In this document: piece by piece, positions 1 to 41,353 of the stretch
How the letters are laid out: every line of letters begins with the position of its first letter
Position numbering within the stretch: the first letter of the stretch is position 1
Source: a virus
Length of the DNA: 41,353 bases
Reading direction: 5' to 3' (one strand)
Virus record (IMG/VR): IMGVR_UViG_3300025818_000041
Location: 1-41,353 of that record
The notes under the pieces: generated by a model
The model's input: only the letters and a program-made list of their open reading frames with translations
Told to the model about the DNA's origin: nothing
Database searches by the model: none
Program-made: the position numbers and the translations under genes

Positions 1-1707
1 CGTGAAATTAATAGCGCCTTTAAGTGTGCGCTTCTTACCATTTGCAAAGGCAATGTAATCGCGGAACTCTTGGTAATGTTCGTGCGCTTTGCCTTGCTCT
101 ATTTTCTTACGACCTAAGTGACGATAGCCTCTGCGGATTGCTTCGCCCCACCACTTGTCGTGCAGAACGTTCATACACCAAACGACTGCTTCGCGCTTCA
201 TACTTGGCGTAAAGCCGCCAGCGGATACGGCGTGAGTTGCGATTACGCAGCCATCATCATCGTTGCTATCGTTGTTGCTATCATTGTCGCCGCTTGATGG
301 CGCGGGAGCGGGCGCAGGTGCGGGCGCAGGTGCGTTGCTCTGATTGTAAAGAGTACCGCCAACATTAACGACTGGATCGCTTGCGCTGTTCAGGACTGTA
401 CCTGTAGCGATTGTTGTGCCTGTCGGTATGACTGTCGCGCCAGAGCTGGTTGTGGACACAGGTGTGTAGCTGTCGTTGTCGTTATTGCTGCTGCCATAGT
501 TGATATACGGATCAAGAGTTGGATCGCTTTCTAGTGCGGCAAAAAACTCTTCGTCACTTAGACCAGATGTGATTAACCCTGTTTCTTCAGCTAAGTTGCC
601 ACCGTAAGCTATAGCGTCTGGCCCAGCGACTGGCGCAACTTGCGCATTTGCACTGGCAGGCGCAGGTGTGGGCATACCGACTGTTGGCGTGTAAGTCTGG
701 AAGCCAGATGTGTCTATCGTCGGCGTAGCTGACGTATCAGTGAACCAAGAGCTAATGTCATACGATCCATCGTCTTTCTGAGTTGACCCAGCAGCTTCAG
801 CAAGTTGCTCTGTCTGCACGCCCATCGCATACTCAGGTGCAACATTTGCTATCGCTGTGTCTAAGATTTCACCAGTAAGACCAACCATTGGCGTAAAGTC
901 ACCGCTCAATCCACCAGTAACGAGAGAACCGCCGTAACTACCTGTGCTGCTTGGGTCAGCAAACGTAGGCTCATTGCCCATCAACATGTCAGGCACATCC
1001 GCTATACCTGTTGCCCCAGTGGCAAGCTGGTTCATGTAGATCGTGTCTTGTGCAATCTGCGCCGCTGGGTTTTGATCTATCAAGGCACGTTCTGCGGTTG
1101 TTAAAACATCAGTCGCAGGGTTGTAAGTCGGATCGCCAATGGCATCGCGGATAACGTCAACATTTGCATTATATTCAGTTGTTGAAAGTGCCGAACCAGT
1201 GCCGCCGCCAGTGCCACCGCCAGTTACGGCCCCTGTAGTTGTACCGCCACCGCCATCGGTAATGACAGGTGTAGATGGAAACGCAGTTGTGTAGTCAATA
1301 GGTGCTGCAACATTGGCACCCACCTGACCTGTAACTGGGTCAATGAATAAGCTCTCCATAAGATTAACTTGCGCTGGGCGTCTTGCAGTAAGCTCACCAA
1401 GTGCCTGCTCATACAGTGGCGCTGACGAATACCCCTGAATACCGCCCGCAAATTGTTGAGGTGCGGGCATGCCTGCCATTGCTCCACCCGCAGGCGTTGA
1501 TAAACCAAATGCGCCCGCCTGACCCGCTACGTTTTGAAATGCCGCCTCTTGCGTGGGATTAAATGCTGCAACGTCTGGGCCGTAGTAAGGCACATAACCA
1601 ATTTGGCTAATAACATCAGCCCGCGACAGATTGCGCTTTGCCGCTTCTTCAATGTACTCAGGTACTTGAACGCTTGTCGTTGTTGACCCGCCTTTACCGC
1701 CTGCCAT
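1..1707 (-). CDS. Virion protein, long allele with Cys-box C-terminal domain (partial, runs off left end)
   Basis: Open for all 569 codons from ATG at 1707 to base 1, with no stop, so the C-terminus is missing. The N-terminus (MAGGKGGSTTTSVQVPEYI) is collinear with the 513 aa protein at 36796-38337, whose start lies exactly 36,630 bases away. The two are therefore alleles of one structural gene. The middle is low-complexity and acidic/proline-rich (APAPAPAPAP, then Asp/Asn/Ser). It is followed near residue 490 by CVIATHAVSAGGFTP and a Trp/Arg-rich segment (KWWGEAIRRGYRHLGRKK). This resembles the Cys-containing 'CFI-box' C-terminal modules of phage and secreted proteins. The right-hand allele lacks this module and ends in a glycine-rich tail. 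Position between the tail genes and the internal proteins suggests a tail or ejection role, which is inferred. It follows the GNAT-like gene; the start has a good RBS (AAGGAGATATAGTA). Confidence 0.8.
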   Translation of the reverse strand, partial: MAGGKGGSTTTSVQVPEYIEEAAKRNLSRADVISQIGYVPYYGPDVAAFNPTQEAAFQNVAGQAGAFGLSTPAGGAMAGMPAPQQFAGGIQGYSSAPLYEQALGELTARRPAQVNLMESLFIDPVTGQVGANVAAPIDYTTAFPSTPVITDGGGGTTTGAVTGGGTGGGTGSALSTTEYNANVDVIRDAIGDPTYNPATDVLTTAERALIDQNPAAQIAQDTIYMNQLATGATGIADVPDMLMGNEPTFADPSSTGSYGGSLVTGGLSGDFTPMVGLTGEILDTAIANVAPEYAMGVQTEQLAEAAGSTQKDDGSYDISSWFTDTSATPTIDTSGFQTYTPTVGMPTPAPASANAQVAPVAGPDAIAYGGNLAEETGLITSGLSDEEFFAALESDPTLDPYINYGSSNNDNDSYTPVSTTSSGATVIPTGTTIATGTVLNSASDPVVNVGGTLYNQSNAPAPAPAPAPAPSSGDNDSNNDSNDDDGCVIATHAVSAGGFTPSMKREAVVWCMNVLHDKWWGEAIRRGYRHLGRKKIEQGKAHEHYQEFRDYIAFANGKKRTLKGAINFT

Positions 1708-1709
1708 TA

Positions 1710-2069
1710 CTATATCTCCTTAACGTATGACGCGTGCAGCGGCTTCCAGCCATGCTTGGTCAAAGGTTTTTTCCATCCGTGGCGACCTGTTATTGTCACT
1801 GCTACACATCCTTGCGCTTTAGACCATGCTATCACATCTTTATGCATATCCATAAGCTGATCTAATTCTCCAGCACCTAGAAACACATTTAGCACCTTTT
1901 TTCTAGGATATACCACAATTTCTGTCACTATGCACCCCTTGGGCGCAGGCCACAACTGCATCTTACCTGACGCAAGCGCTTCAGCTACGTCATCAAAGTT
2001 GTGCGTGCCGCCTGAATACTCCAGCGCGGCCTCTATCCAAGGGCGGCATCTCTCTAGCTCCTTATCCAT
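1710..2069 (-). CDS. GNAT-fold-like virion-associated protein (allele A)
   Basis: 119 aa, starting MDKELERCRPWIEAALEYSG. The order of elements (TEIVVYPRKKVLNVFLG, then WSKAQGCVAVTITGR, then GWKKPLTKHGW) resembles a reduced N-acetyltransferase fold found in small proteins of tailed-phage structural modules. No acetyl-CoA-binding Q/RxxGxG/A loop is obvious, so a structural rather than enzymatic role is likely. The same gene occurs as a second, diverged allele at 38337-38699. Start chosen at 2069, where it overlaps the C1q-like gene by 8 bases. The family assignment is by pattern only. Confidence 0.75.
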   Translation of the reverse strand: MDKELERCRPWIEAALEYSGGTHNFDDVAEALASGKMQLWPAPKGCIVTEIVVYPRKKVLNVFLGAGELDQLMDMHKDVIAWSKAQGCVAVTITGRHGWKKPLTKHGWKPLHASYVKEI

Positions 2070-2721
2070 GAAGCCTCACCATAGATATAGTTGCTGACGG
2101 CGTAGCGGGCGCAAATGCAGTTGCGGCCACTGCTTCCAAATAGCCGCTTATGCTGTTAGTTGCCCACATGACCTCTATGTAATCTCCTGCGGAAAGTTGC
2201 AGTATCGCTGACTTTGTAACGACAAGAGTTGATCCATTTTGGTGCAACGTGTTTTCCATTGCAGATTTGGGAACATCTGTGCCATTAATTCTAACCCAAA
2301 ACCACATCCTAACAGTTGAGGCAGATGTTGAGGCCATTTGCATTGAATATGTCACAGAATATTGCCCAGCCTCGTCAACGACCAAACGCGAAGCTGGCGT
2401 GCCGTTCGTTATTCCTTCAGCCAAATCTTCAGTAAACGTCAGCGCGTATGCCGTATTTATTAATGCCGCCGTCTGATCTGTGCTGATAGTGCCATCGTAA
2501 TGGCCGTCTTCCAGCACAACTTGCCGCCACTCGCCGTTCTTACTGACAACGGGGTATTCGTTTATGCGATCCCACATCAACACGCCGTCTTCTGCCGCGC
2601 TCTCGCCGCCCGTCTGCTGCACAAGCGGTGATCGCGTCTGGCCAAGATACAGCATCATGCGCCGCGCCCATGACTTCCAGTCATCGCCCTGCGGCTCTGG
2701 TGCGCGATACTGCTGCGTCAT
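2062..2721 (-). CDS. C1q/TNF-like jelly-roll tail protein (copy 1)
   Basis: 219 aa. The N-terminal part (MTQQYRAPEPQGDDWKSWA) is helical and likely a connector. From about residue 85 the sequence has the features of C1q-like beta-sandwich domains in marine-phage tail proteins: AGQYSVTYSMQMAS, VRMWFWVRINGTDVPKSA, then LSAGDYIEVMWAT. Such domains form trimers on the virion surface. A 4-base ATGA overlap couples it to the upstream nozzle gene. The last ~35 codons carry the only differences from the copy at 38692-39351 (for example GDYIEV against GDHIEV). The boundary between identical and diverged sequence therefore falls inside this gene. Confidence 0.75.
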   Translation of the reverse strand: MTQQYRAPEPQGDDWKSWARRMMLYLGQTRSPLVQQTGGESAAEDGVLMWDRINEYPVVSKNGEWRQVVLEDGHYDGTISTDQTAALINTAYALTFTEDLAEGITNGTPASRLVVDEAGQYSVTYSMQMASTSASTVRMWFWVRINGTDVPKSAMENTLHQNGSTLVVTKSAILQLSAGDYIEVMWATNSISGYLEAVAATAFAPATPSATISMVRLHG

Positions 2722-4199
2722 CTACGTCCACCCGCAACAGTGTCCAAGCGATTTACTCCAACGCGCCAATCCGACAGCCTTGCGCCGTCAACGCGCATCC
2801 GCACTTGACGCCCCGTGAAGCGCATGCTGGTTGGGTTGGCCATGCTGAACGGGCCATATGATCTCTCAACGCCATTGGGGTAAAAGCGCGTTTTGAACGT
2901 GGCGCTGACGTCGCCCTGCGTCTTCTCGTCGGGGATCATCTCCGTGACACTGATAACTTTATCGCCAGTTCCAAGCATGATTGGGCCTGTCTCTGCAAAT
3001 GGCGATAGGTTGCCATATTCAAAGCCAACCTCATGCTCGTATATTTTCTTATCCGACGGATCTGCCATCATAGGTTGACGGAATGCTCCGCGATCAGCAC
3101 CCGCAGTGCGCGCCAGCGTGCCAATAGACCATGTGTTTTCTACATAGTTATATGTGACGTAACGGTCGTTTTCTGTTGATGCAGCAGACGGGTAGAACCA
3201 CCATATCTCGCCATAGTTGCCGTTCGACATGGCAAACGCCTTACTGATTTGACCACGGTTTATGTCGTTAAACACGTAATCTGACACGTCGCTCTGGATC
3301 TCCTGCACACCGCCGCCAGTGTAGGCGTAGAAGGCATGCACGCCCATCCAGAAGCATCCAGCGTCAACGGTCGCATATGCAAGGTTAGCGGCGAGACCGC
3401 ATGAAGACCCAACGCGCTCAATGCCGTAAACATAGGGCGGGCCAATATAGTTCGCCACATGCGCGTCCGTCGTTGTCAGGATAAGCGTCTGGCCGCGCAC
3501 GTTCATTCCAGCCACAATTTGGCCATTCGTTTCCAACTCAAGATCGCCAGCCTCGTTTGTTGCAGCAGGCGTCCACGTTGTATTGTCTTCGCGGTCAGAC
3601 CACTGCACTTTTCGCGGGTTGCCGCCTGCGCCAAGGCAAAATAGGAAGCGCTCTGCCGTCACAACTATGTTTCTGTTGTTAATTGGCGCGTTGGCAACTT
3701 GCGCGGCAATAGTGCCAGTATTGAGCTGCCACTCGTAAACCTTGCCGTCGTCTTCGTTATTGGCCAGCAAGTATTCACCCCAGCTCTGCAAGTTCCACGA
3801 CGTGGCTGGCTGGATACGAATGGTATCGGGGCGCGCAATGCCGTAGGCATAGTTGCCGTATGTGCTACCGCCGTAGCCAGTAAACGATACCGCGTCTTCA
3901 CGGCCAGCCGTCAGGCCGCTTGGCGTGATGTCGTATTGGGTGCCGGTTTCGCTGTACACGTAGAGCTTGTTGTATGTGCCGGTGCCAATCCAACGATCAT
4001 TGCTGTTGTCGATCCAAGTGTGCATGCCGCGCGGAATAGCATTTGTTGCGGTGCTTGATCTTGTGCGCCAGCCACCAACGGGGCGCATTGTGCCGTCGAT
4101 CCAACGGATCAAACTAGCATCGCGCCAGCGGCCCATGCTCTGCAAGTCGGTGCCGTTGCGGTAAACCCCAGCGGGTACTTCCAAATTTATCAGAGCCAT
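2718..4199 (-). CDS. Tail nozzle / tail-tube protein (copy 1)
   Basis: 493 aa from MALINLEVPAGVYRNGTD. Repeated Trp/Gly/Tyr-rich beta segments (GRWRDASLIRWIDGTMRPVGGW, split here as GRWRDASLIRW and DGTMRPVGGW) suggest a beta-propeller. This is the pattern of the nozzle proteins of podoviruses (T7 gp12, P22 gp10 and SU10 nozzle class), which extend the tail below the adaptor. A longer frame begins 20 codons upstream, but that stretch holds a sigma70-like promoter. ATG at 4199 is preceded by CGAGGCAACG, so I chose it. An identical copy lies at 39348-40829. The function is from general fold features and gene order, not a specific motif. Confidence 0.75.
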   Translation of the reverse strand: MALINLEVPAGVYRNGTDLQSMGRWRDASLIRWIDGTMRPVGGWRTRSSTATNAIPRGMHTWIDNSNDRWIGTGTYNKLYVYSETGTQYDITPSGLTAGREDAVSFTGYGGSTYGNYAYGIARPDTIRIQPATSWNLQSWGEYLLANNEDDGKVYEWQLNTGTIAAQVANAPINNRNIVVTAERFLFCLGAGGNPRKVQWSDREDNTTWTPAATNEAGDLELETNGQIVAGMNVRGQTLILTTTDAHVANYIGPPYVYGIERVGSSCGLAANLAYATVDAGCFWMGVHAFYAYTGGGVQEIQSDVSDYVFNDINRGQISKAFAMSNGNYGEIWWFYPSAASTENDRYVTYNYVENTWSIGTLARTAGADRGAFRQPMMADPSDKKIYEHEVGFEYGNLSPFAETGPIMLGTGDKVISVTEMIPDEKTQGDVSATFKTRFYPNGVERSYGPFSMANPTSMRFTGRQVRMRVDGARLSDWRVGVNRLDTVAGGRR

Positions 4200-4230
4200 C
4201 GTTGCCTCGTTGGTGTTGCGCGCTTGCCGC

Positions 4231-4259
4231 AGTGTAGCACATGACCATTTGATGCGCAA
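4231..4259 (-). promoter_or_regulatory. Sigma70-like promoter for the nozzle gene
   Basis: Read on the minus strand: -35 TTGCGC (4259-4254), a 17-bp spacer and -10 TACACT (4236-4231). It lies 31 bp upstream of the ATG at 4199, just after a hairpin terminator. Repeated at 40861-40889. Confidence 0.5.
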
Positions 4260-4261
4260 AA

Positions 4262-4280
4262 GGGCAGCGTTTTGCTGCCC
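4262..4280 (-). terminator. Hairpin terminator between the DUF6447-like gene and the nozzle gene
   Basis: A perfect 7-bp stem GGGCAGC/GCTGCCC closes a 5-base loop and is followed on the minus strand by TTTTG. The T-tract is short, so termination may be partial, letting the late transcript through. Repeated at 40892-40910. Confidence 0.5.
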
Positions 4281-4305
4281 CTCGCGTTTTTTCTATGCTG
4301 CGCGG

Positions 4306-4512
4306 CTATTCCGCGTCAGGCTCAAGGGCAGCTTTCAGCTCGGCCATGAAGCCCTGCCTGCCCATCTGAAGCTGCACCAAGTTAAACTGCGCAGATCCGA
4401 TCTTCTGGTCTAGCGAATTGATGTGATTTATGCACATCTTTGCAGTGTCGCTCAGTTGATCTTCAGTGTATTCCACATCGTCAATCGTAATGACCTTTTT
4501 TTCTTCAGTCAT
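4306..4512 (-). CDS. DUF6447-like small protein (copy 1)
   Basis: 68 aa. Begins MTEEKKVITIDDVEYTEDQL, with a beta-hairpin (ITIDDVEYTEDQLS) followed by a long amphipathic helix and an acidic end (LEPDAE). The pattern fits the DUF6447 family, common beside phage tail genes and of unknown function. The RBS AAGGAAATC precedes the start. Identical copy at 40936-41142. Confidence 0.7.
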   Translation of the reverse strand: MTEEKKVITIDDVEYTEDQLSDTAKMCINHINSLDQKIGSAQFNLVQLQMGRQGFMAELKAALEPDAE

Positions 4513-4529
4513 ATGATTTCCTTTCTAGG

Positions 4530-4841
4530 TTATGCTGCCCAAGGTGTTCCTGCGGCAGTCGTTGGATTTACCATTGCGTCTATTTTTGACGCTATGGCAG
4601 CTTCGGTATCCTCTTGGGATACATGACCCCACACCCAGCCTTGAGCTTGAGCCTCAGTAATATCGGCATAGGGTGTAAAGTCGGACGCAGAGGCATCGTA
4701 GGTTAAGCCACAAGTGCCATATGAGCTTGCTGTGTTGCCATCATCATCAACGCCTGTGCAGCGCCAATGTGCAATGTAAACGCCACCATCAGCAGTGTGA
4801 CGCTCTAGGGTTGGAATAGTCCAAGTGTAAGTTACAGCCAT
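4530..4841 (-). CDS. Small tail-region protein of unknown function (copy 1)
   Basis: 103 aa. It has beta-strand character (VTYTWTIPTLERH, GGVYIAHWRCTGVDDDG) and ends in TTAAGTPWAA after a helix (SQEDTEAAIASKIDAMVNP). Similar small proteins lie next to fibre genes in many marine phages, and a DUF7936-type assignment is possible. It follows the fibre gene by 12 bases and has its own RBS (GGAGAAAAATT). The right end of the window holds a truncated second copy. Confidence 0.7.
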   Translation of the reverse strand: MAVTYTWTIPTLERHTADGGVYIAHWRCTGVDDDGNTASSYGTCGLTYDASASDFTPYADITEAQAQGWVWGHVSQEDTEAAIASKIDAMVNPTTAAGTPWAA

Positions 4842-21464: not shown

Positions 21465-21556
21465 CACATCCACCCCATGCTGACGGCGCCGATCCAGCCC
21501 AGCACCGACGCGGCAATCGCTGCGGCGATGATGATGTCTTGCGTCCACTTAGTCAT
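21464..21556 (-). CDS. Tiny membrane protein (30 aa)
   Basis: MTKWTQDIIIAAAIAASVLG followed by WIGAVSMGWM. A single hydrophobic segment flanked by an N-terminal polar turn. Start overlaps the upstream stop (ATGA) and stop overlaps the next start (TGATG), exactly as in the surrounding coupled genes, so this short frame is likely translated. Role unknown. Confidence 0.55.
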   Translation of the reverse strand: MTKWTQDIIIAAAIAASVLGWIGAVSMGWM

Positions 21557-22257
21557 GCTGCTTTCCATTCTACAAATAAATCACGCACCAGCTTCTTTGT
21601 CATGTATCTCAATGCACGATTGTGCGCGTGGCCATCGCTATCTACACGCTCGCGCTCAAGCGTTTTGCGCGTGTCATATATCCTGCGATACGGGCCAGCG
21701 TTTTCTTCTTTTCCTTGGCTCTTGAGCAGGCTGTCGCCGATCGTCCAGAATACCGAATGACGTGACGGGCTATATCCATGCGCCAATGCCATCTCCGCAT
21801 TGCTGCATTTGCGCTGCCTCTGGCCATCTATCACGGCAAGCCCAGCGCGCTTATATATGCCGTCAAGCTCCTTTTCGTATTCCATAAAGTCGCCTACCTC
21901 GCCAACAATGCCCGCCAAGCCCAGATGGCCAAAGCCTTTCACCTTATCGACAAACGTTGATACTGGCAGCTCCTTTGCCAGCCCCACAAGCCACTTCTCA
22001 AACTCGGCACGGCTTTCTAAGAGCGGCTGCCTTGCCTCAAATAGTGGCTTTGTGGCGGCGTATTCATCCATTGTGCCTTCGCCCCTCTTCAGTTGGGCGA
22101 ATAGCTTATTGGCTTCCTTGATGTCGCCGTCACGAAAGCTGCGGCAGATTGCTTTAATCTGCAACACCAGCTTTGCTTCAGCGCGAACCATGTTCTGCCT
22201 ATTGCGCCAAGTCAGATATATCTTGGCAATGGTTGGGTCTTCGTAACGTTTATCCAT
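21553..22257 (-). CDS. IS110/Nop-like RNA-binding protein associated with the hairpin array (stand-alone Tas-like)
   Basis: 234 aa from MDKRYEDPTIAKIYLTWRNR. N-terminal ~100 residues are long helices suited to a coiled-coil domain (ICRSFRDGDIKEANKLFAQL; EFEKWLVGLAKELP). Residues 104-150 (DKVKGFGHLGLAGIVGEVGD, then FMEYEKELDGIYKRAGLAVI) match the Transposase_20 pattern of IS110 transposases, in which a helix-hairpin-helix precedes 'GLAGIxGExGD' and 'KRxGL'; this region is akin to the Nop fold. Residues 161-231 (GYSPSRHSVFWTIGDSLLK, GPYRRIYDTRK, GHAHNRALRYMTKKLVRDLF) are basic and fit RNA binding. There is no DEDD/RuvC, HNH or serine-recombinase-like catalytic part, so it should bind rather than cut unless a partner acts. 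ATG at 22257 has an excellent RBS (AAGGAG, 7 bases). The frame stays open 143 codons upstream, but that stretch is the array. A degenerate IS110 remnant is the alternative. Confidence 0.75.
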   Translation of the reverse strand: MDKRYEDPTIAKIYLTWRNRQNMVRAEAKLVLQIKAICRSFRDGDIKEANKLFAQLKRGEGTMDEYAATKPLFEARQPLLESRAEFEKWLVGLAKELPVSTFVDKVKGFGHLGLAGIVGEVGDFMEYEKELDGIYKRAGLAVIDGQRQRKCSNAEMALAHGYSPSRHSVFWTIGDSLLKSQGKEENAGPYRRIYDTRKTLERERVDSDGHAHNRALRYMTKKLVRDLFVEWKAA

Positions 22258-22279: not shown

Positions 22280-22719
22280 GAGGCGGAGGCAAAATGACTT
22301 TTCTGCGTAGCTTGAGTGGCCTCTGGTTGTTGGTGCGCCAGTTCTATGGCATCTCTGCGGGTTCTGATCGGCACCAAATAAAGTGGGAGCGCGGGCTTCT
22401 TGGCATTTCTGCGTAGAAAATTTGGCTCCCTGTTGTAAGGCGGGGGTGCATGATCGGTGGCATTTCTGCATGCTTTAGATGACCCCCTGTTGAATGGTTG
22501 GGAAGGGTGACGGCTAATCGGCATTGCTGCATGGTCAGTATGACCCTTCCCATTGGCGCGCTCAGTATTCGGCATAATGCGATGATCGAGTGGCACCAAA
22601 ATAAGGTGGGGGCGTGGATTGCATGGCATTGCTGCGAAAACCCAATGACCCCCTGTTGTAAGGCGGGGGCGTCGCATCGTTGGCATTTCTGCGTTGGTTG
22701 ACCGACCCCCTGTTAAACA
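22280..22719 (-). ncRNA. Eight-unit hairpin array resembling a TIGR guide-RNA array
   Basis: Begins 9 bases after the stop of the 177 aa gene and ends 22 bases before the Tas-like start, so it is co-transcribed on the minus strand. Units: 22665-22710, 22608-22653, 22553-22599, 22500-22551, 22442-22487, 22385-22430, 22330-22377, 22280-22323. All eight read: 5' edge arm ending YC, 11 variable bases, loop, 9 variable bases, then NCR and the 3' edge arm. The loop is GCAGAAATGCC (units 1, 5, 6), GCAGCAATGCC (2, 4), GCAGAGATGCC (7), GCATTATGCC (3, one base short) and GCAGAAAAGTC (8, degenerate). GCA/TGC encloses GAAA, GCAA or GAGA, all GNRA tetraloops. Edge arms pair perfectly (GGGGG/CCCCC; GGGAAGGGT/ACCCTTCCC; GGGAGC/GCTCCC; TTGGTGC/GCACCAA) with compensatory changes. 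YC plus 11, 11 and 9 bases plus NCR is 36 bases, the tigRNA length as I recall it. Function as guides is inferred. Confidence 0.8.
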
Positions 22720-23253
22720 TTATTCTACCAAAGCCTGCTCATACTCAGCTTTGACTTCGCTGATATTCCAAACATCTCTGACGACTTTATCATCAGTGAC
22801 GCGGGCCTTGATGGCAGAATAGAAGCTGCGCTGCCCCTCATGGTGCTTGCTGCGGGATGTCTCGTGCATAATCGCCTGCTCAAGATCCTCGCTTGTTGCA
22901 TCGCCCAAGCAGATGCCGGTATTGGGCAATAGCCAACGCTCAAACATATCCTTTGCATATGCGGGTGCCATGTTTTTCAGTGACACGGCTGGCGTTGATG
23001 TCTCGCCCTTGCTCAGCACAGTTTGATGCGCTGCACGCTTAAGTCGCGCGCGGTAGCCTCTGGGCTGCGCAACAACATCCAAATATGCAATGCGCTCCAA
23101 GTGGCGGCGTGTAGCCTCTTCGCGCAAAACATCGTCTTGCTGAAGCATAACCAGATATTTCTCCGATGCTTCCTTCGCGCTAGCAGATCCCTCCCAAGCC
23201 TTTTCTACGGCCTCGGACACAATCGAAATAATATTTTCTTGCTTAGTCATCAC
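22720..23253 (-). CDS. Protein of unknown function upstream of the hairpin array (177 aa)
   Basis: Helical N-terminus (IVSEAVEKAWEGSASAKEAS, EKYLVMLQQDDVLREEATRR), basic stretch GYRARLKRAAHQTVLSKGET, then DMFERWLLPNTGICLGDATS and HETSRSKHHEGQRSFYSAIK. No family recognised and no nuclease motif visible. It ends 9 bases before the array, so array transcripts pass through it; a partnership with the array is possible but only positional. Confidence 0.6.
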   Translation of the reverse strand: MMTKQENIISIVSEAVEKAWEGSASAKEASEKYLVMLQQDDVLREEATRRHLERIAYLDVVAQPRGYRARLKRAAHQTVLSKGETSTPAVSLKNMAPAYAKDMFERWLLPNTGICLGDATSEDLEQAIMHETSRSKHHEGQRSFYSAIKARVTDDKVVRDVWNISEVKAEYEQALVE

Positions 23254-36795: not shown

Positions 36796-38337
36796 TCATT
36801 TGCCACCGCCTCCACCGCGCCTAGCGGGCTTTGATGGAGGGGCGATTGTGGCCCTTCCAGTGGTAGGCGCAAAAGAAATCGGTTCATTTCTAAAACTATC
36901 ATCTCTTTGCGGCACAATAATTGGCGCTGGCAAGTCTGGATCCACAAACCCAGCCGCGCCGCCTGCAAACATCGGGTCGCCAACACTTACCGCTGGCCCT
37001 AATATACTTTCCATTATTGCGTTTACATCACTAGAGCCAGTGTCGGCAGGCGACGGTGGGGTCGCCGGTGCCTCTTCGACTATGTTGTACTTGCTTGCCG
37101 TGTCTGCGCCAAACATTGTACTTATGTCTCCGGCTTGGTTCCCGCTTTGCTGCAAGTTGCCAGCAGCGTCAAATAACTGATACGATGAAGTTCCATCACC
37201 TAAAGGCGTGTATCTTATAGTTTTCTTATTTGGGTCTATTGCTGGTGCGGAGGGCGCTGCTTGGCCAATACCAAGCGCCTCCTCTAAAGCGCCGATTGCG
37301 GCACCAGTTATGCCGCCACCCATAATAAAGTTGCCAACATCAGACAGCAGCCCGCCGCCCTCGAATGGGCCGCCAGCCGCATTAGGGCCGCCGCCGTCAA
37401 TCATATCTATAAAGCCTGTGTATTCTTGTGGCTCTAAGCCCAATATTGCCTGCTCGCCTGCAGCAAGTGGCCTTCCCTCTATCGGCGTGTAGCCAATTTC
37501 ATCTATCGCTGCGCTAATTGCGGGGTCTAATGTGTAGTCGCTGGGAACTGTTGGCGGCAAAAATGCATCAACACCCGCAGCATCAATAATCTCCGGCGTT
37601 ATGCCAAATCCAGTTGATTGCCCTGTCGGGTCTTGCGCTGCCTGCGCGGCTTGGTATTCGTAAACTGTTTGGAAAGCCTCATTATAATCAGGGTTTGTGG
37701 GATCAGTTGCCATTATTTGCTGAGCAATCTGAACCTCTGGCGGCGCGATATTAAATATTTGGTCGTTTGGCTGCACAGCCAAGTTTGGGTTAGCCGCAAA
37801 GCTTGTTGTCTCATATGTAACATTTTGCGGCCCCGCAGCCGCCTGCGCCTGCGCGATCGCAAGCTCGTTTGCGCGATCTGCTGCGCGGATGTCTGCCATC
37901 GTACCCATAGTGCTGTAATCAACAGCAGGCTGCACACGCGTTCCGGCTTGGCCTGTCACGGGATCAATGAAAAAGCTCTCAATGTATTGCGCCTGCGCTG
38001 GGCGCTGCGCGGCAAGCTCGTCAACGGCCTGCTGGTACAATGGAGCTGCGCTATATCCGCGTACACCGCCAGCAAACTGCGTTGGCTCTGGCATGCCGCC
38101 CATAATATCAGCTTGCGTTGTTGGCGTTCCCAACCCAAACGCAGACGCAACGTCAGCGGTTTGCTGGAAGCCAGCCTGCTGGAACGGCGTAAACGCGGCA
38201 ACATCCGGCCCGAAATATGGCACATAGCCAATCTGGCTGATGCCTTCGGCCTTTGCCAAGTTACGGCGCGCTGCTTCTTCAATGTATTCTGGAATCTCGA
38301 CGCTTGTCGATGTTGACCCGCCCTTGCCGCCTGACAT
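36796..38337 (-). CDS. Virion protein, short allele (513 aa)
   Basis: N-terminus (MSGGKGGSTSTSVEIPEYIE) followed by EAARRNLAKAEGISQIGYVP, then FGPDVAAFTPFQQAGFQQTA and YQQAVDELAAQRPAQAQYIE. The middle contains Pro/Ala-rich segments. It ends in a Gly-rich tail (PARRGGGGGK). Homologous and collinear with 1-1707 for the first ~130 residues; beyond that they diverge, and this allele lacks the Cys-box domain. Function unknown; position fits tail/ejection. Confidence 0.8.
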   Translation of the reverse strand: MSGGKGGSTSTSVEIPEYIEEAARRNLAKAEGISQIGYVPYFGPDVAAFTPFQQAGFQQTADVASAFGLGTPTTQADIMGGMPEPTQFAGGVRGYSAAPLYQQAVDELAAQRPAQAQYIESFFIDPVTGQAGTRVQPAVDYSTMGTMADIRAADRANELAIAQAQAAAGPQNVTYETTSFAANPNLAVQPNDQIFNIAPPEVQIAQQIMATDPTNPDYNEAFQTVYEYQAAQAAQDPTGQSTGFGITPEIIDAAGVDAFLPPTVPSDYTLDPAISAAIDEIGYTPIEGRPLAAGEQAILGLEPQEYTGFIDMIDGGGPNAAGGPFEGGGLLSDVGNFIMGGGITGAAIGALEEALGIGQAAPSAPAIDPNKKTIRYTPLGDGTSSYQLFDAAGNLQQSGNQAGDISTMFGADTASKYNIVEEAPATPPSPADTGSSDVNAIMESILGPAVSVGDPMFAGGAAGFVDPDLPAPIIVPQRDDSFRNEPISFAPTTGRATIAPPSKPARRGGGGGK

Positions 38338-38699
38338 TATTCAAACTCCTTCACATATGAGGCGTGCAGTGGCACCCAGCCATGCGCCTTCAGTGGTTTC
38401 TTCCAGCCAAACCGGCCCGTCATGGTCAACGCAGAGCATCCTTGCGCTTTTGCCCATGCTATCACATCTTCATGCATTTCTAAAATCTGATCCAACTCGC
38501 CGCCGCCAAGAAACACGTTTAAAACTTTCTTTCTCGGATATACCACTATTTCGGTGACTATGCACCCCCTCGGCGTAGGCCAGAGCTGCATCGTTCCCTT
38601 GTATATACCCTCGGCCACGTCGATGAAGTCATGCGTGCCGCCGGAATACTCCAAAGCGGCCTCAATCCATCCACGGCATCTCTCAAGCTCTTTATCCAT
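38337..38699 (-). CDS. GNAT-fold-like virion-associated protein (allele B)
   Basis: 120 aa from MDKELERCRGWIEAALEYSG. Same elements as the 119 aa allele at 1710-2069 (TEIVVYPRKKVLNVFLGGGE, WAKAQGCSALTMTGRFGWKK) with many substitutions. Longer frames upstream are rejected because ATG 38699 matches the allele exactly at the 36,630-base offset. Stop overlaps the next start (TAATG). Confidence 0.75.
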   Translation of the reverse strand: MDKELERCRGWIEAALEYSGGTHDFIDVAEGIYKGTMQLWPTPRGCIVTEIVVYPRKKVLNVFLGGGELDQILEMHEDVIAWAKAQGCSALTMTGRFGWKKPLKAHGWVPLHASYVKEFE

Positions 38700-39351
38700 G
38701 AAGCCTCGCCATAGATATAGTTGCTGACGGCGTAGCGGGCGCAAATGCAGTTGCGGCCACTGCCTCTAAGTACCCGCTTGTACTGTCGGTAGCCCACATG
38801 ACCTCTATGTGATCTCCTGCGGAAAGTTGCAGTATCGCTGACTTTGTAACGACAAGAGTTGATCCATTTTGGTGCAACGTGTTTTCCATTGCAGATTTGG
38901 GAACATCTGTGCCATTAATTCTAACCCAAAACCACATCCTAACAGTTGAGGCAGATGTTGAGGCCATTTGCATTGAATATGTCACAGAATATTGCCCAGC
39001 CTCGTCAACGACCAAACGCGAAGCTGGCGTGCCGTTCGTTATTCCTTCAGCCAAATCTTCAGTAAACGTCAGCGCGTATGCCGTATTTATTAATGCCGCC
39101 GTCTGATCTGTGCTGATAGTGCCATCGTAATGGCCGTCTTCCAGCACAACTTGCCGCCACTCGCCGTTCTTACTGACAACGGGGTATTCGTTTATGCGAT
39201 CCCACATCAACACGCCGTCTTCTGCCGCGCTCTCGCCGCCCGTCTGCTGCACAAGCGGTGATCGCGTCTGGCCAAGATACAGCATCATGCGCCGCGCCCA
39301 TGACTTCCAGTCATCGCCCTGCGGCTCTGGTGCGCGATACTGCTGCGTCAT
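38692..39351 (-). CDS. C1q/TNF-like jelly-roll tail protein (copy 2)
   Basis: 219 aa, same as 2062-2721 except near the C-terminus (GDHIEVMWATDSTSGY here). Identity with copy 1 is complete upstream of codon ~180 and breaks near 38811. See copy 1 for domain description. Confidence 0.75.
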   Translation of the reverse strand: MTQQYRAPEPQGDDWKSWARRMMLYLGQTRSPLVQQTGGESAAEDGVLMWDRINEYPVVSKNGEWRQVVLEDGHYDGTISTDQTAALINTAYALTFTEDLAEGITNGTPASRLVVDEAGQYSVTYSMQMASTSASTVRMWFWVRINGTDVPKSAMENTLHQNGSTLVVTKSAILQLSAGDHIEVMWATDSTSGYLEAVAATAFAPATPSATISMARLHG

Positions 39352-40829
39352 CTACGTCCACCCGCAACAGTGTCCAAGCGATTTACTCCAACGCGCCAAT
39401 CCGACAGCCTTGCGCCGTCAACGCGCATCCGCACTTGACGCCCCGTGAAGCGCATGCTGGTTGGGTTGGCCATGCTGAACGGGCCATATGATCTCTCAAC
39501 GCCATTGGGGTAAAAGCGCGTTTTGAACGTGGCGCTGACGTCGCCCTGCGTCTTCTCGTCGGGGATCATCTCCGTGACACTGATAACTTTATCGCCAGTT
39601 CCAAGCATGATTGGGCCTGTCTCTGCAAATGGCGATAGGTTGCCATATTCAAAGCCAACCTCATGCTCGTATATTTTCTTATCCGACGGATCTGCCATCA
39701 TAGGTTGACGGAATGCTCCGCGATCAGCACCCGCAGTGCGCGCCAGCGTGCCAATAGACCATGTGTTTTCTACATAGTTATATGTGACGTAACGGTCGTT
39801 TTCTGTTGATGCAGCAGACGGGTAGAACCACCATATCTCGCCATAGTTGCCGTTCGACATGGCAAACGCCTTACTGATTTGACCACGGTTTATGTCGTTA
39901 AACACGTAATCTGACACGTCGCTCTGGATCTCCTGCACACCGCCGCCAGTGTAGGCGTAGAAGGCATGCACGCCCATCCAGAAGCATCCAGCGTCAACGG
40001 TCGCATATGCAAGGTTAGCGGCGAGACCGCATGAAGACCCAACGCGCTCAATGCCGTAAACATAGGGCGGGCCAATATAGTTCGCCACATGCGCGTCCGT
40101 CGTTGTCAGGATAAGCGTCTGGCCGCGCACGTTCATTCCAGCCACAATTTGGCCATTCGTTTCCAACTCAAGATCGCCAGCCTCGTTTGTTGCAGCAGGC
40201 GTCCACGTTGTATTGTCTTCGCGGTCAGACCACTGCACTTTTCGCGGGTTGCCGCCTGCGCCAAGGCAAAATAGGAAGCGCTCTGCCGTCACAACTATGT
40301 TTCTGTTGTTAATTGGCGCGTTGGCAACTTGCGCGGCAATAGTGCCAGTATTGAGCTGCCACTCGTAAACCTTGCCGTCGTCTTCGTTATTGGCCAGCAA
40401 GTATTCACCCCAGCTCTGCAAGTTCCACGACGTGGCTGGCTGGATACGAATGGTATCGGGGCGCGCAATGCCGTAGGCATAGTTGCCGTATGTGCTACCG
40501 CCGTAGCCAGTAAACGATACCGCGTCTTCACGGCCAGCCGTCAGGCCGCTTGGCGTGATGTCGTATTGGGTGCCGGTTTCGCTGTACACGTAGAGCTTGT
40601 TGTATGTGCCGGTGCCAATCCAACGATCATTGCTGTTGTCGATCCAAGTGTGCATGCCGCGCGGAATAGCATTTGTTGCGGTGCTTGATCTTGTGCGCCA
40701 GCCACCAACGGGGCGCATTGTGCCGTCGATCCAACGGATCAAACTAGCATCGCGCCAGCGGCCCATGCTCTGCAAGTCGGTGCCGTTGCGGTAAACCCCA
40801 GCGGGTACTTCCAAATTTATCAGAGCCAT
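39348..40829 (-). CDS. Tail nozzle / tail-tube protein (copy 2)
   Basis: 493 aa, identical to 2718-4199, with the same start choice, RBS, upstream promoter (40861-40889) and hairpin (40892-40910). Represents the same gene seen again because the window wraps. Confidence 0.75.
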   Translation of the reverse strand: MALINLEVPAGVYRNGTDLQSMGRWRDASLIRWIDGTMRPVGGWRTRSSTATNAIPRGMHTWIDNSNDRWIGTGTYNKLYVYSETGTQYDITPSGLTAGREDAVSFTGYGGSTYGNYAYGIARPDTIRIQPATSWNLQSWGEYLLANNEDDGKVYEWQLNTGTIAAQVANAPINNRNIVVTAERFLFCLGAGGNPRKVQWSDREDNTTWTPAATNEAGDLELETNGQIVAGMNVRGQTLILTTTDAHVANYIGPPYVYGIERVGSSCGLAANLAYATVDAGCFWMGVHAFYAYTGGGVQEIQSDVSDYVFNDINRGQISKAFAMSNGNYGEIWWFYPSAASTENDRYVTYNYVENTWSIGTLARTAGADRGAFRQPMMADPSDKKIYEHEVGFEYGNLSPFAETGPIMLGTGDKVISVTEMIPDEKTQGDVSATFKTRFYPNGVERSYGPFSMANPTSMRFTGRQVRMRVDGARLSDWRVGVNRLDTVAGGRR

Positions 40830-40935
40830 CGTTGCCTCGTTGGTGTTGCGCGCTTGCCGCAGTGTAGCACATGACCATTTGATGCGCAAAAGGGCAGCGT
40901 TTTGCTGCCCCTCGCGTTTTTTCTATGCTGCGCGG

Positions 40936-41142
40936 CTATTCCGCGTCAGGCTCAAGGGCAGCTTTCAGCTCGGCCATGAAGCCCTGCCTGCCCATCTGAA
41001 GCTGCACCAAGTTAAACTGCGCAGATCCGATCTTCTGGTCTAGCGAATTGATGTGATTTATGCACATCTTTGCAGTGTCGCTCAGTTGATCTTCAGTGTA
41101 TTCCACATCGTCAATCGTAATGACCTTTTTTTCTTCAGTCAT
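40936..41142 (-). CDS. DUF6447-like small protein (copy 2)
   Basis: 68 aa, identical to 4306-4512. Same gene seen again through wrap-around. Confidence 0.7.
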   Translation of the reverse strand: MTEEKKVITIDDVEYTEDQLSDTAKMCINHINSLDQKIGSAQFNLVQLQMGRQGFMAELKAALEPDAE

Positions 41143-41159
41143 ATGATTTCCTTTCTAGG

Positions 41160-41353
41160 TTATGCTGCCCAAGGTGTTCCTGCGGCAGTCGTTGGATTTA
41201 CCATTGCGTCTATTTTTGACGCTATGGCAGCTTCGGTATCCTCTTGGGATACATGACCCCACACCCAGCCTTGAGCTTGAGCCTCAGTAATATCGGCATA
41301 GGGTGTAAAGTCGGACGCAGAGGCATCGTAGGTTAAGCCACAAGTGCCATATG
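41160..41353 (-). CDS. Small tail-region protein (copy 2, truncated by the window end)
   Basis: Corresponds to 4530-4841. The stop is at 41160; the first ~39 codons lie beyond the window. No sign of decay, only truncation by the end. Confidence 0.7.
   Translation of the reverse strand, partial: YGTCGLTYDASASDFTPYADITEAQAQGWVWGHVSQEDTEAAIASKIDAMVNPTTAAGTPWAA

What the first reader, a model, noticed from the sequence alone, without database searches (positions are those of the whole stretch)
22280..22719. Eight-unit RNA hairpin array with two fixed-length variable segments per unit: a likely TIGR guide array
All eight units keep exactly 11 variable bases between the 5' edge (…YC) and the loop. 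All have 9 variable bases between the loop and the 3' edge (NCR…). The loop core GCAGMAATGCC is conserved, while the variable segments share no sequence with each other. This is not a simple tandem repeat or REP element: constant edges and loop with two unrelated short inserts is the layout of dual-spacer guide RNAs. The TIGR-Tas systems I know of (Faure et al., Science 2025; phage and parasitic bacteria, ~36-nt tigRNAs with spacer A-loop-spacer B) have this form. YC+11+11+9+NCR gives 36 bases. The neighbouring gene encodes an IS110/Nop-like protein. The loop/edge sequences and the alphaproteobacterial phage setting may be a new variant.
Basis: partly seen in the sequence, partly recalled or inferred. 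Interest (0 to 1): 0.95.

Follow-up and report, generated by a model that had tools for sequence, protein, structure and literature searches.

The report
Phage TIGR stem-loop guide-RNA array
A marine bacteriophage carries an eight-unit array of small RNA hairpins, each holding two 9-letter guide segments, next to its Nop-domain partner protein; the array belongs to the recently described TIGR-Tas RNA-guided family, and comparison of 22 sibling phages shows the guide segments changing fast inside an otherwise constant scaffold.

Summary
Eight hairpin units (22280-22710, minus strand) lie between a 177-aa gene and a 234-aa Nop-only protein (TasA type). The protein matches the solved TasR Nop domain (PDB 9MTY, E 4e-13) and NCBIfam TIGR_Tas (E 6e-22, below that model's cut-off). 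The array is the stem-loop type that Faure et al. 2025 already describe, not the 36-nt dual-repeat type. Aligning 114 units from 21 related arrays resolves each unit: a palindromic edge stem, box C (YCA), 9-nt spacer A, box D (CG), a 3-bp GNRA-capped mini-hairpin, box C (YCA), 9-nt spacer B, box D (CR), stem. Both stems covary. The new information is population-level. In 22 IMG/VR relatives, Tas (pN/pS 0.03) and the stems and loops are almost fixed, while spacers in the same stem "slot" differ at 33-60% of positions, more than Tas synonymous sites (15%). Rhizobium-family phages and prophages carry a second version with 30-nt interiors. A systematic target search gave one credible candidate: a 17-of-18 match in a C1q-like virion gene of a related phage. 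The search as a whole was negative, so native targets remain unproven.

The parts
21556..22257 (-). TasA-type Nop-domain protein (234 aa, no nuclease domain); RBS AAGGAG just upstream
   Evidence: PDB 9MTY TasR E 2e-11 / 3.7e-13; TasH 21kl E 5e-4; NF052498 TIGR_Tas E 6.4e-22
22665..22710 (-). unit 1: stem GGGGGT/GCCCCC, spacer A GTCAACCAA (22694-22702), spacer B ACGATGCGA (22672-22680)
22608..22653 (-). unit 2: stem GGGGGT/GCCCCC, spacer A TTGGGTTTT (22637-22645), spacer B TGCAATCCA (22615-22623)
22553..22599 (-). unit 3: stem TTGGTGC/GCGCCAA, 10-nt loop GCATTATGCC, spacer A CTCGATCAT (22582-22590), spacer B AATACTGAG (22561-22569)
22499..22552 (-). unit 4: stem TGGGAAGGGT/ACCCTTCCCA, spacer A TACTGACCA (22532-22540), spacer B ATTAGCCGT (22510-22518); unit with the candidate target in L032/L053
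22442..22487 (-). unit 5: stem GGGGGT/ACCCCC, spacer A TCTAAAGCA (22471-22479), spacer B CCGATCATG (22449-22457)
22385..22430 (-). unit 6: stem GGGAGC/GCTCCC, spacer A AATTTTCTA (22414-22422), spacer B AGAAGCCCG (22392-22400)
22330..22377 (-). unit 7: stem TTGGTGC/GCACCAA, spacer A ATCAGAACC (22360-22368), spacer B TAGAACTGG (22338-22346)
22280..22323 (-). unit 8: stem GAGGC/GCCTC, spacer A CTCAAGCTA (22308-22316), spacer B TTTTGCCTC (22286-22294)
22723..23253 (-). 177-aa gene of unknown function directly upstream of the array, on the same strand, in every related locus that reaches it; the array begins right after its stop codon (inferred single transcript)
   Evidence: 97-99% identical in the close relatives, 47-55% in the four distant ones; no Pfam or PHROG match

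Best explanation
This is a TIGR-TasA system of the stem-loop type. The array is probably transcribed with the upstream 177-aa gene and tasA (inferred from the gene order and from the absence of a detectable promoter). Each unit folds into an edge stem and a small GNRA-capped loop hairpin, which present two box C/D-like anchors and two single-stranded 9-nt spacers (shown by covariation). The transcript is cut in the linkers into single hairpin guides that bind a TasA dimer (inferred from Faure 2025). Spacer A pairs with one DNA strand and spacer B with the other strand of an adjoining site (inferred from Faure 2025). With no nuclease domain, TasA would bind, unwind and bend the target and so block its expression or replication, rather than cut it (inferred). 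The guide segments diverge much faster than synonymous sites in the same operon while everything else is held constant, so the targets are most likely fast-changing foreign DNA, competing phages being the best candidate (inference; one candidate target).
For: Protein: homology to TasR/TasH Nop domains and TIGR_Tas; all-helical model with a long N-terminal helical hairpin (low confidence). RNA: 43 units give edge stem + GCA-GNRA-UGY hairpin, found independently by RNAalifold, 38 compensatory cells. Box composition symmetric at edge and loop, 9+9 spacers. Turnover: spacer p-distance 0.33-0.60, stems 0-0.06, loops 0.02-0.08, tas 0.035; tas pS 0.148, pN 0.004. Alleles of one slot resemble each other more than other slots (0 of 2000 permutations). 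Independent second version next to TasA of Rhizobium phage RHph_X2_25 and Rhizobiaceae genomes: 30-nt interior, loop ...AACCCA. Candidate target: unit 4 against L032/L053, 17 of 18 spacer bases with a 2-nt gap, in a homolog (43% aa, E 8e-57) of the window's own C1q-like gene; the window's own copy does not match beyond six bases.
Against: No RNA data. TIGR_Tas model score 78.6 is below its cut-off of 100. Systematic target search of about 2.1 Mb of related phage DNA with all spacer pairs shows no excess over other gaps or orders. Other IMG/VR scans: none for two spacer families, chance-level hits for two more. A codon-phase test of spacer alleles was negative. The fold search did not rank a Tas structure significantly because the model is poor.
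Confidence: 0.9

Rival explanations
1. TIGR-TasA array whose guides regulate the phage's own genes or host genes (a programmable repressor) rather than attack competing elements.
For: TasA has no nuclease domain; no target with at most 1 mismatch was found in related phages other than the scan-derived candidate.
Against: Spacers have no close match in the window and diverge faster than synonymous sites, which is unexpected for regulation of conserved host or self genes. Host genomes were not searched.
Confidence: 0.2
2. Guide array for RNA modification or RNA binding, like archaeal box C/D sRNAs: the two spacers pair with RNA.
For: Same box C/D-like two-guide layout and Nop-domain partner.
Against: TasA lacks the fused catalytically dead RuvC domain of Nop5; sequence is closest to TasR/TasH, which target DNA; the genes next to the array gave no Pfam or PHROG match, so no fibrillarin or L7Ae partner was recognised; spacers are hypervariable, unlike rRNA guides.
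Confidence: 0.05
3. Not guide RNAs: a repetitive structural or regulatory element such as REP/BIME elements, attenuators or integration hairpins.
For: Palindromic stems of several types.
Against: Fixed interior geometry, box C/D symmetry, strict linkage to a Tas protein in 22 contigs and in Rhizobiaceae, and fast change restricted to the two 9-nt segments.
Confidence: 0.03

Closest known systems
TIGR stem-loop arrays with TasA (Faure et al., Science 2025, PMC12045711; Peromyscus gut contig)
   Same: Nop-only TasA next to tandem stem-loops; palindromic edges that vary between units; two 8-12 nt spacers flanked by box C/D; loop may be conserved in length and sequence
   Different: Here the loop is a conserved 11-nt element that folds as a 3-bp GNRA-capped hairpin; box D reads CG/CR rather than UG; each array position keeps its own stem sequence across phages while its spacers change
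Dual-repeat TIGR arrays (TaTasR, SpTasH, FpTasA; PDB 9MTY, 21kl)
   Same: 9-nt spacers, box C close to CCA, dual spacers in one guide, homologous Nop domain
   Different: No edge repeat: edges are variable palindromes separated by linkers, so 36-nt periodic processing is not expected; no nuclease domain
Stem-loop array beside TasA of Rhizobium phage RHph_X2_25 (MW960032) and Rhizobiaceae genomes
   Same: Homologous TasA (33-37% identity), tandem hairpins on one or both sides, box C CCA, same stem sequences with different spacers in different genomes
   Different: Interior of 30 nt instead of 34 nt, loop about CGNAACCCA without a GNRA hairpin; in the phage record the gene is only a hypothetical protein
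IS110 bridge RNA and transposase
   Same: Nop-like RNA-binding domain; weak profile match (NF033542, 19.9 bits)
   Different: No DEDD transposase domain, an array instead of one bridge RNA

Membership tests
TIGR-Tas | Tas protein with the Nop domain of this family | tested here: met
   PDB 9MTY (TasR) E 3.7e-13, TasH 21kl E 5e-4; TIGR_Tas profile E 6.4e-22 for the window protein
NCBIfam NF052498 (TIGR-Tas endonuclease model) | Passes the curated cut-off of the model | tested here: not met
   78.6 bits against a cut-off of 100. The model is named for the RNA-guided endonucleases and this protein has no nuclease domain, so this bears on membership of that curated model, not on the wider Tas family
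TIGR-Tas | Array of dual-spacer units next to tas | tested here: met
   8 units ending 22 nt from the tas start; 6-11 units parsed in 21 related arrays
[quoted passage not shown]
   9-nt spacers; YCA and C[G/R] at both places; the closing base pair covaries
TIGR-Tas, stem-loop type | Variable but palindromic sequence in place of the edge repeat | tested here: met
   94% of stem positions paired with geometry fixed in advance; 4 of 5 stem pairs with compensatory changes
TIGR-Tas | Array transcribed and processed into Tas-bound guide RNAs | not testable with these tools
   needs RNA sequencing
TIGR-Tas | RNA-guided pairing of the two spacers with opposite DNA strands of one site | tested here: inconclusive
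   one candidate site in the expected order, 2-nt gap; no general excess of matches
Archaeal box C/D sRNP | Partner genes for fibrillarin/L7Ae; Nop5 with dead RuvC domain | tested here: not met
   234-aa Nop-only protein; no such partner recognised among the neighbouring genes scanned
IS110 transposon | DEDD transposase domain | tested here: not met
   IS110 model 19.9 bits against a cut-off of 140, partial match
CRISPR-Cas | Single direct repeat with one spacer of about 30 nt; Cas proteins | tested here: not met
   two 9-nt spacers per unit and palindromic edges; neighbouring proteins scanned with Pfam and PHROGs gave no Cas match

The most novel reading that the evidence does not exclude
In this phage lineage a TIGR-TasA array works as a set of fixed, individually stemmed slots, each aimed at one site of competing phages. 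The 9+9-nt spacers of a slot evolve faster than neutral to track that site, and one native target is a C1q-like virion gene of a related phage, whose counterpart in the array's own genome no longer matches.
Probability: 0.3. Interest if true: 0.85.

Novelty: new member of a known kind. Interest (0 to 1): 0.6.

Why it matters
Faure et al. name the natural targets of TIGR spacers, the role of nuclease-free TasA and the way arrays change as open questions. This locus comes with a population series: 21 arrays with near-identical TasA but different spacers, plus related phages without the system. It shows that the guide segments change fast inside a constant scaffold, that units at identical stems move between array positions, and that half-units (A or B alone) are exchanged. 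That makes target origin and spacer turnover directly testable, and the marine phage and Rhizobium-phage versions give compact starting points for the stem-loop subtype.

Tried and rejected
1) Codon-phase idea: allele families of spacers seemed to vary like codons of a protein-coding target; a formal test gave no period-3 signal (p 0.45), so this is dropped. 2) Slot-7 spacers matching a small cyanophage gene in six contigs: homologs of one gene, and about as many hits are expected by chance with that degenerate pattern, so not claimed. 3) The L193 hit for the GTGAATAGCCC family: unrelated 41% GC phage, chance level. 4) Peptide-level search of target motifs gave only background-like hits. 5) Self-targets in the window: none. 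6) Fold search of the AlphaFold model: model too weak (mean pLDDT 61), best Tas hits rank 8-9 without significance. 7) Rfam: no family in the window. 8) Further literature on tigRNA in the library: only Faure 2025, a 2025 review and two passing mentions. 9) Search of a sample of the Alphaproteobacteria class for TasA: only the known Rhizobium genome in 385.

Full report
WHAT IS THERE. On the minus strand, between a conserved 177-aa gene (22723-23253) and a 234-aa gene (21556-22257), lie eight hairpin units at 22280-22710. Each has a perfect stem of 5-10 bp, C, 11 nt, an 11-nt loop element (10 nt in unit 3), 9 nt, NC and the return stem. Linkers between units are 0-11 nt (such as GCCTTACAACA).

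PROTEIN. The 234-aa product has no Pfam hit of note, but it matches TasR in PDB 9MTY (phmmer E 2e-11; profile E 3.7e-13) and TasH (E 5e-4), and the NCBIfam TIGR_Tas profile (E 6.4e-22, 78.6 bits, below the cut-off of 100; IS110 only 19.9 bits). Faure et al. state that 9MTY is their TasR structure. The window protein has no nuclease domain, hence TasA type. The AlphaFold model is all-helical with a long N-terminal helical hairpin, but of low confidence.

RELATED LOCI. IMG/VR holds 22 contigs with this protein (81-100% identity); 21 carry a readable array just upstream and one is cut off by its contig end. Related phages of 34-37 kb that share the tail genes have no detectable tas, so the system looks like an accessory module. 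By capsid protein the closest isolate is an Octadecabacter phage (62%), and one gene is 83% identical in DNA to Roseobacter phage CRP-901: a marine Roseobacter-group phage is the likely setting (inference). Rhizobium phage RHph_X2_25 and 6 of 398 Rhizobiaceae genomes have homologous TasA; several are flanked by hairpins with an interior of exactly 30 nt, a loop like CGNAACCCA and shared stem sequences (GCAGATCGGC, GGGGCGGC, TTGCTTGT) but different spacers.

UNIT ANATOMY. Composition over 114 distinct units: A1 is A/G, A2-A10 variable, A11 C/T; loop GCAGNRAUGYC; B1 mostly A; B2-B10 variable; then C. Hence box C (YCA), spacer A of 9 nt, box D (CG), a GCA/UGY hairpin closed by a GNRA tetraloop, box C (YCA), spacer B of 9 nt, box D (C then stem purine). 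This is the symmetric plan of TIGR guides (9-nt spacers, box C CCA, box D UG in TasR). RNAalifold finds the same two helices on its own. With the structure named, 98.8% of cells pair, 38 cells are compensatory, and the covariation score is 0.407 against 0.184 in shuffles. The units in that alignment were chosen with a paired stem; without that choice and with fixed geometry, 94% pair against 32-62% when slid.

TURNOVER. In 16 close arrays, units with unique stems can be compared slot by slot. Spacers differ at 33-60% of positions, stems at 0-6%, loops at 2-8%, the tas gene at 3.5%, with tas pS 0.148 and pN 0.004. The guide segments therefore diverge beyond neutral sites of the same operon. Alleles of one slot are still more alike than alleles of different slots (9.7 against 12.6 of 18 differences; 0 of 2000 permutations), so they change in part by descent with many substitutions, besides replacement. 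Identical spacer pairs are found at several array positions only among the units with GGGGG stems. Some A spacers occur with unrelated B spacers and the reverse (for example TCTAAAGCA, TGGGAACTG, B TGCATAGTA), so half-units appear to be exchanged. Four-gamete tests show recombination between a few slots.

TARGETS. From the 3' overhang reported for TasR, the target strand should read spacer A, short gap, reverse complement of spacer B (own deduction). Searches of the window, the array-bearing contigs and about 2.1 Mb of related phages show no excess at any gap or order. One IMG/VR-wide pattern search, for the unit-4 family, gave a single hit: 17 of 18 spacer bases, gap 2 nt (within the 0-2 nt Faure found tolerated), in a phage gene 43% identical (E 8e-57) to the window's own C1q-like 219-aa gene. 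About 0.65 hits are expected by chance in a collection of assumed 45 Gb (the size is an assumption). That the hit falls in a homolog of a gene of the same phage group is what makes it notable; my rough chance estimate over all scans is 0.2-1%, and it rests on a guess of how much of the collection this phage group makes up. The window's own copy of the site matches only its first six bases. I treat it as a candidate, not as proof. Host genomes were not searched for targets.

COMPARISON. Faure et al. describe exactly this second array type: tandem stem-loops, two 8-12 nt spacers, palindromes instead of edge repeats, loops sometimes conserved, processed at linkers, bound by TasA. The locus is a new member of that kind. 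What it adds is a defined GNRA-capped loop, a symmetric box C/D consensus, a natural population with fast spacer change on fixed stems, a second version in Rhizobium-family phages and prophages, and one testable target. Their supplementary tables were not available here, so I cannot say whether this very lineage is already listed in them.

Noticed in passing
window 1560-4723 and 38190-41353: The last 3.2 kb repeat positions 1560-4723 at 96% identity: the contig seems to run past the start of a roughly 36.6-kb genome into a slightly different strain, so the tail genes here appear twice.
   Followed up: partly
L023 (MW960032 20918-29703) and L194/L228-L231, L233: Rhizobium phage RHph_X2_25 and Rhizobiaceae genomes carry TIGR-like stem-loop arrays with 30-nt interiors beside TasA homologs; the annotated start of the RHph_X2_25 gene runs into its own array.
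   Followed up: partly
window 22723-23253: 177-aa gene of unknown function that precedes the array in every related locus that reaches it; a candidate partner or leader gene of the system.
   Followed up: partly
window 2065-2721 and 38695-39351: C1q/BclA-like virion gene that varies strongly (43-98% identity) between these phages while the capsid gene is about 96% conserved in the close group: probable host-recognition or decoration gene.
   Followed up: partly
L232 and L234: Two Rhizobiaceae TasA homologs (32-34% identity) without recognisable 30-nt stem-loop units nearby; they may use another array form or none.
   Followed up: no
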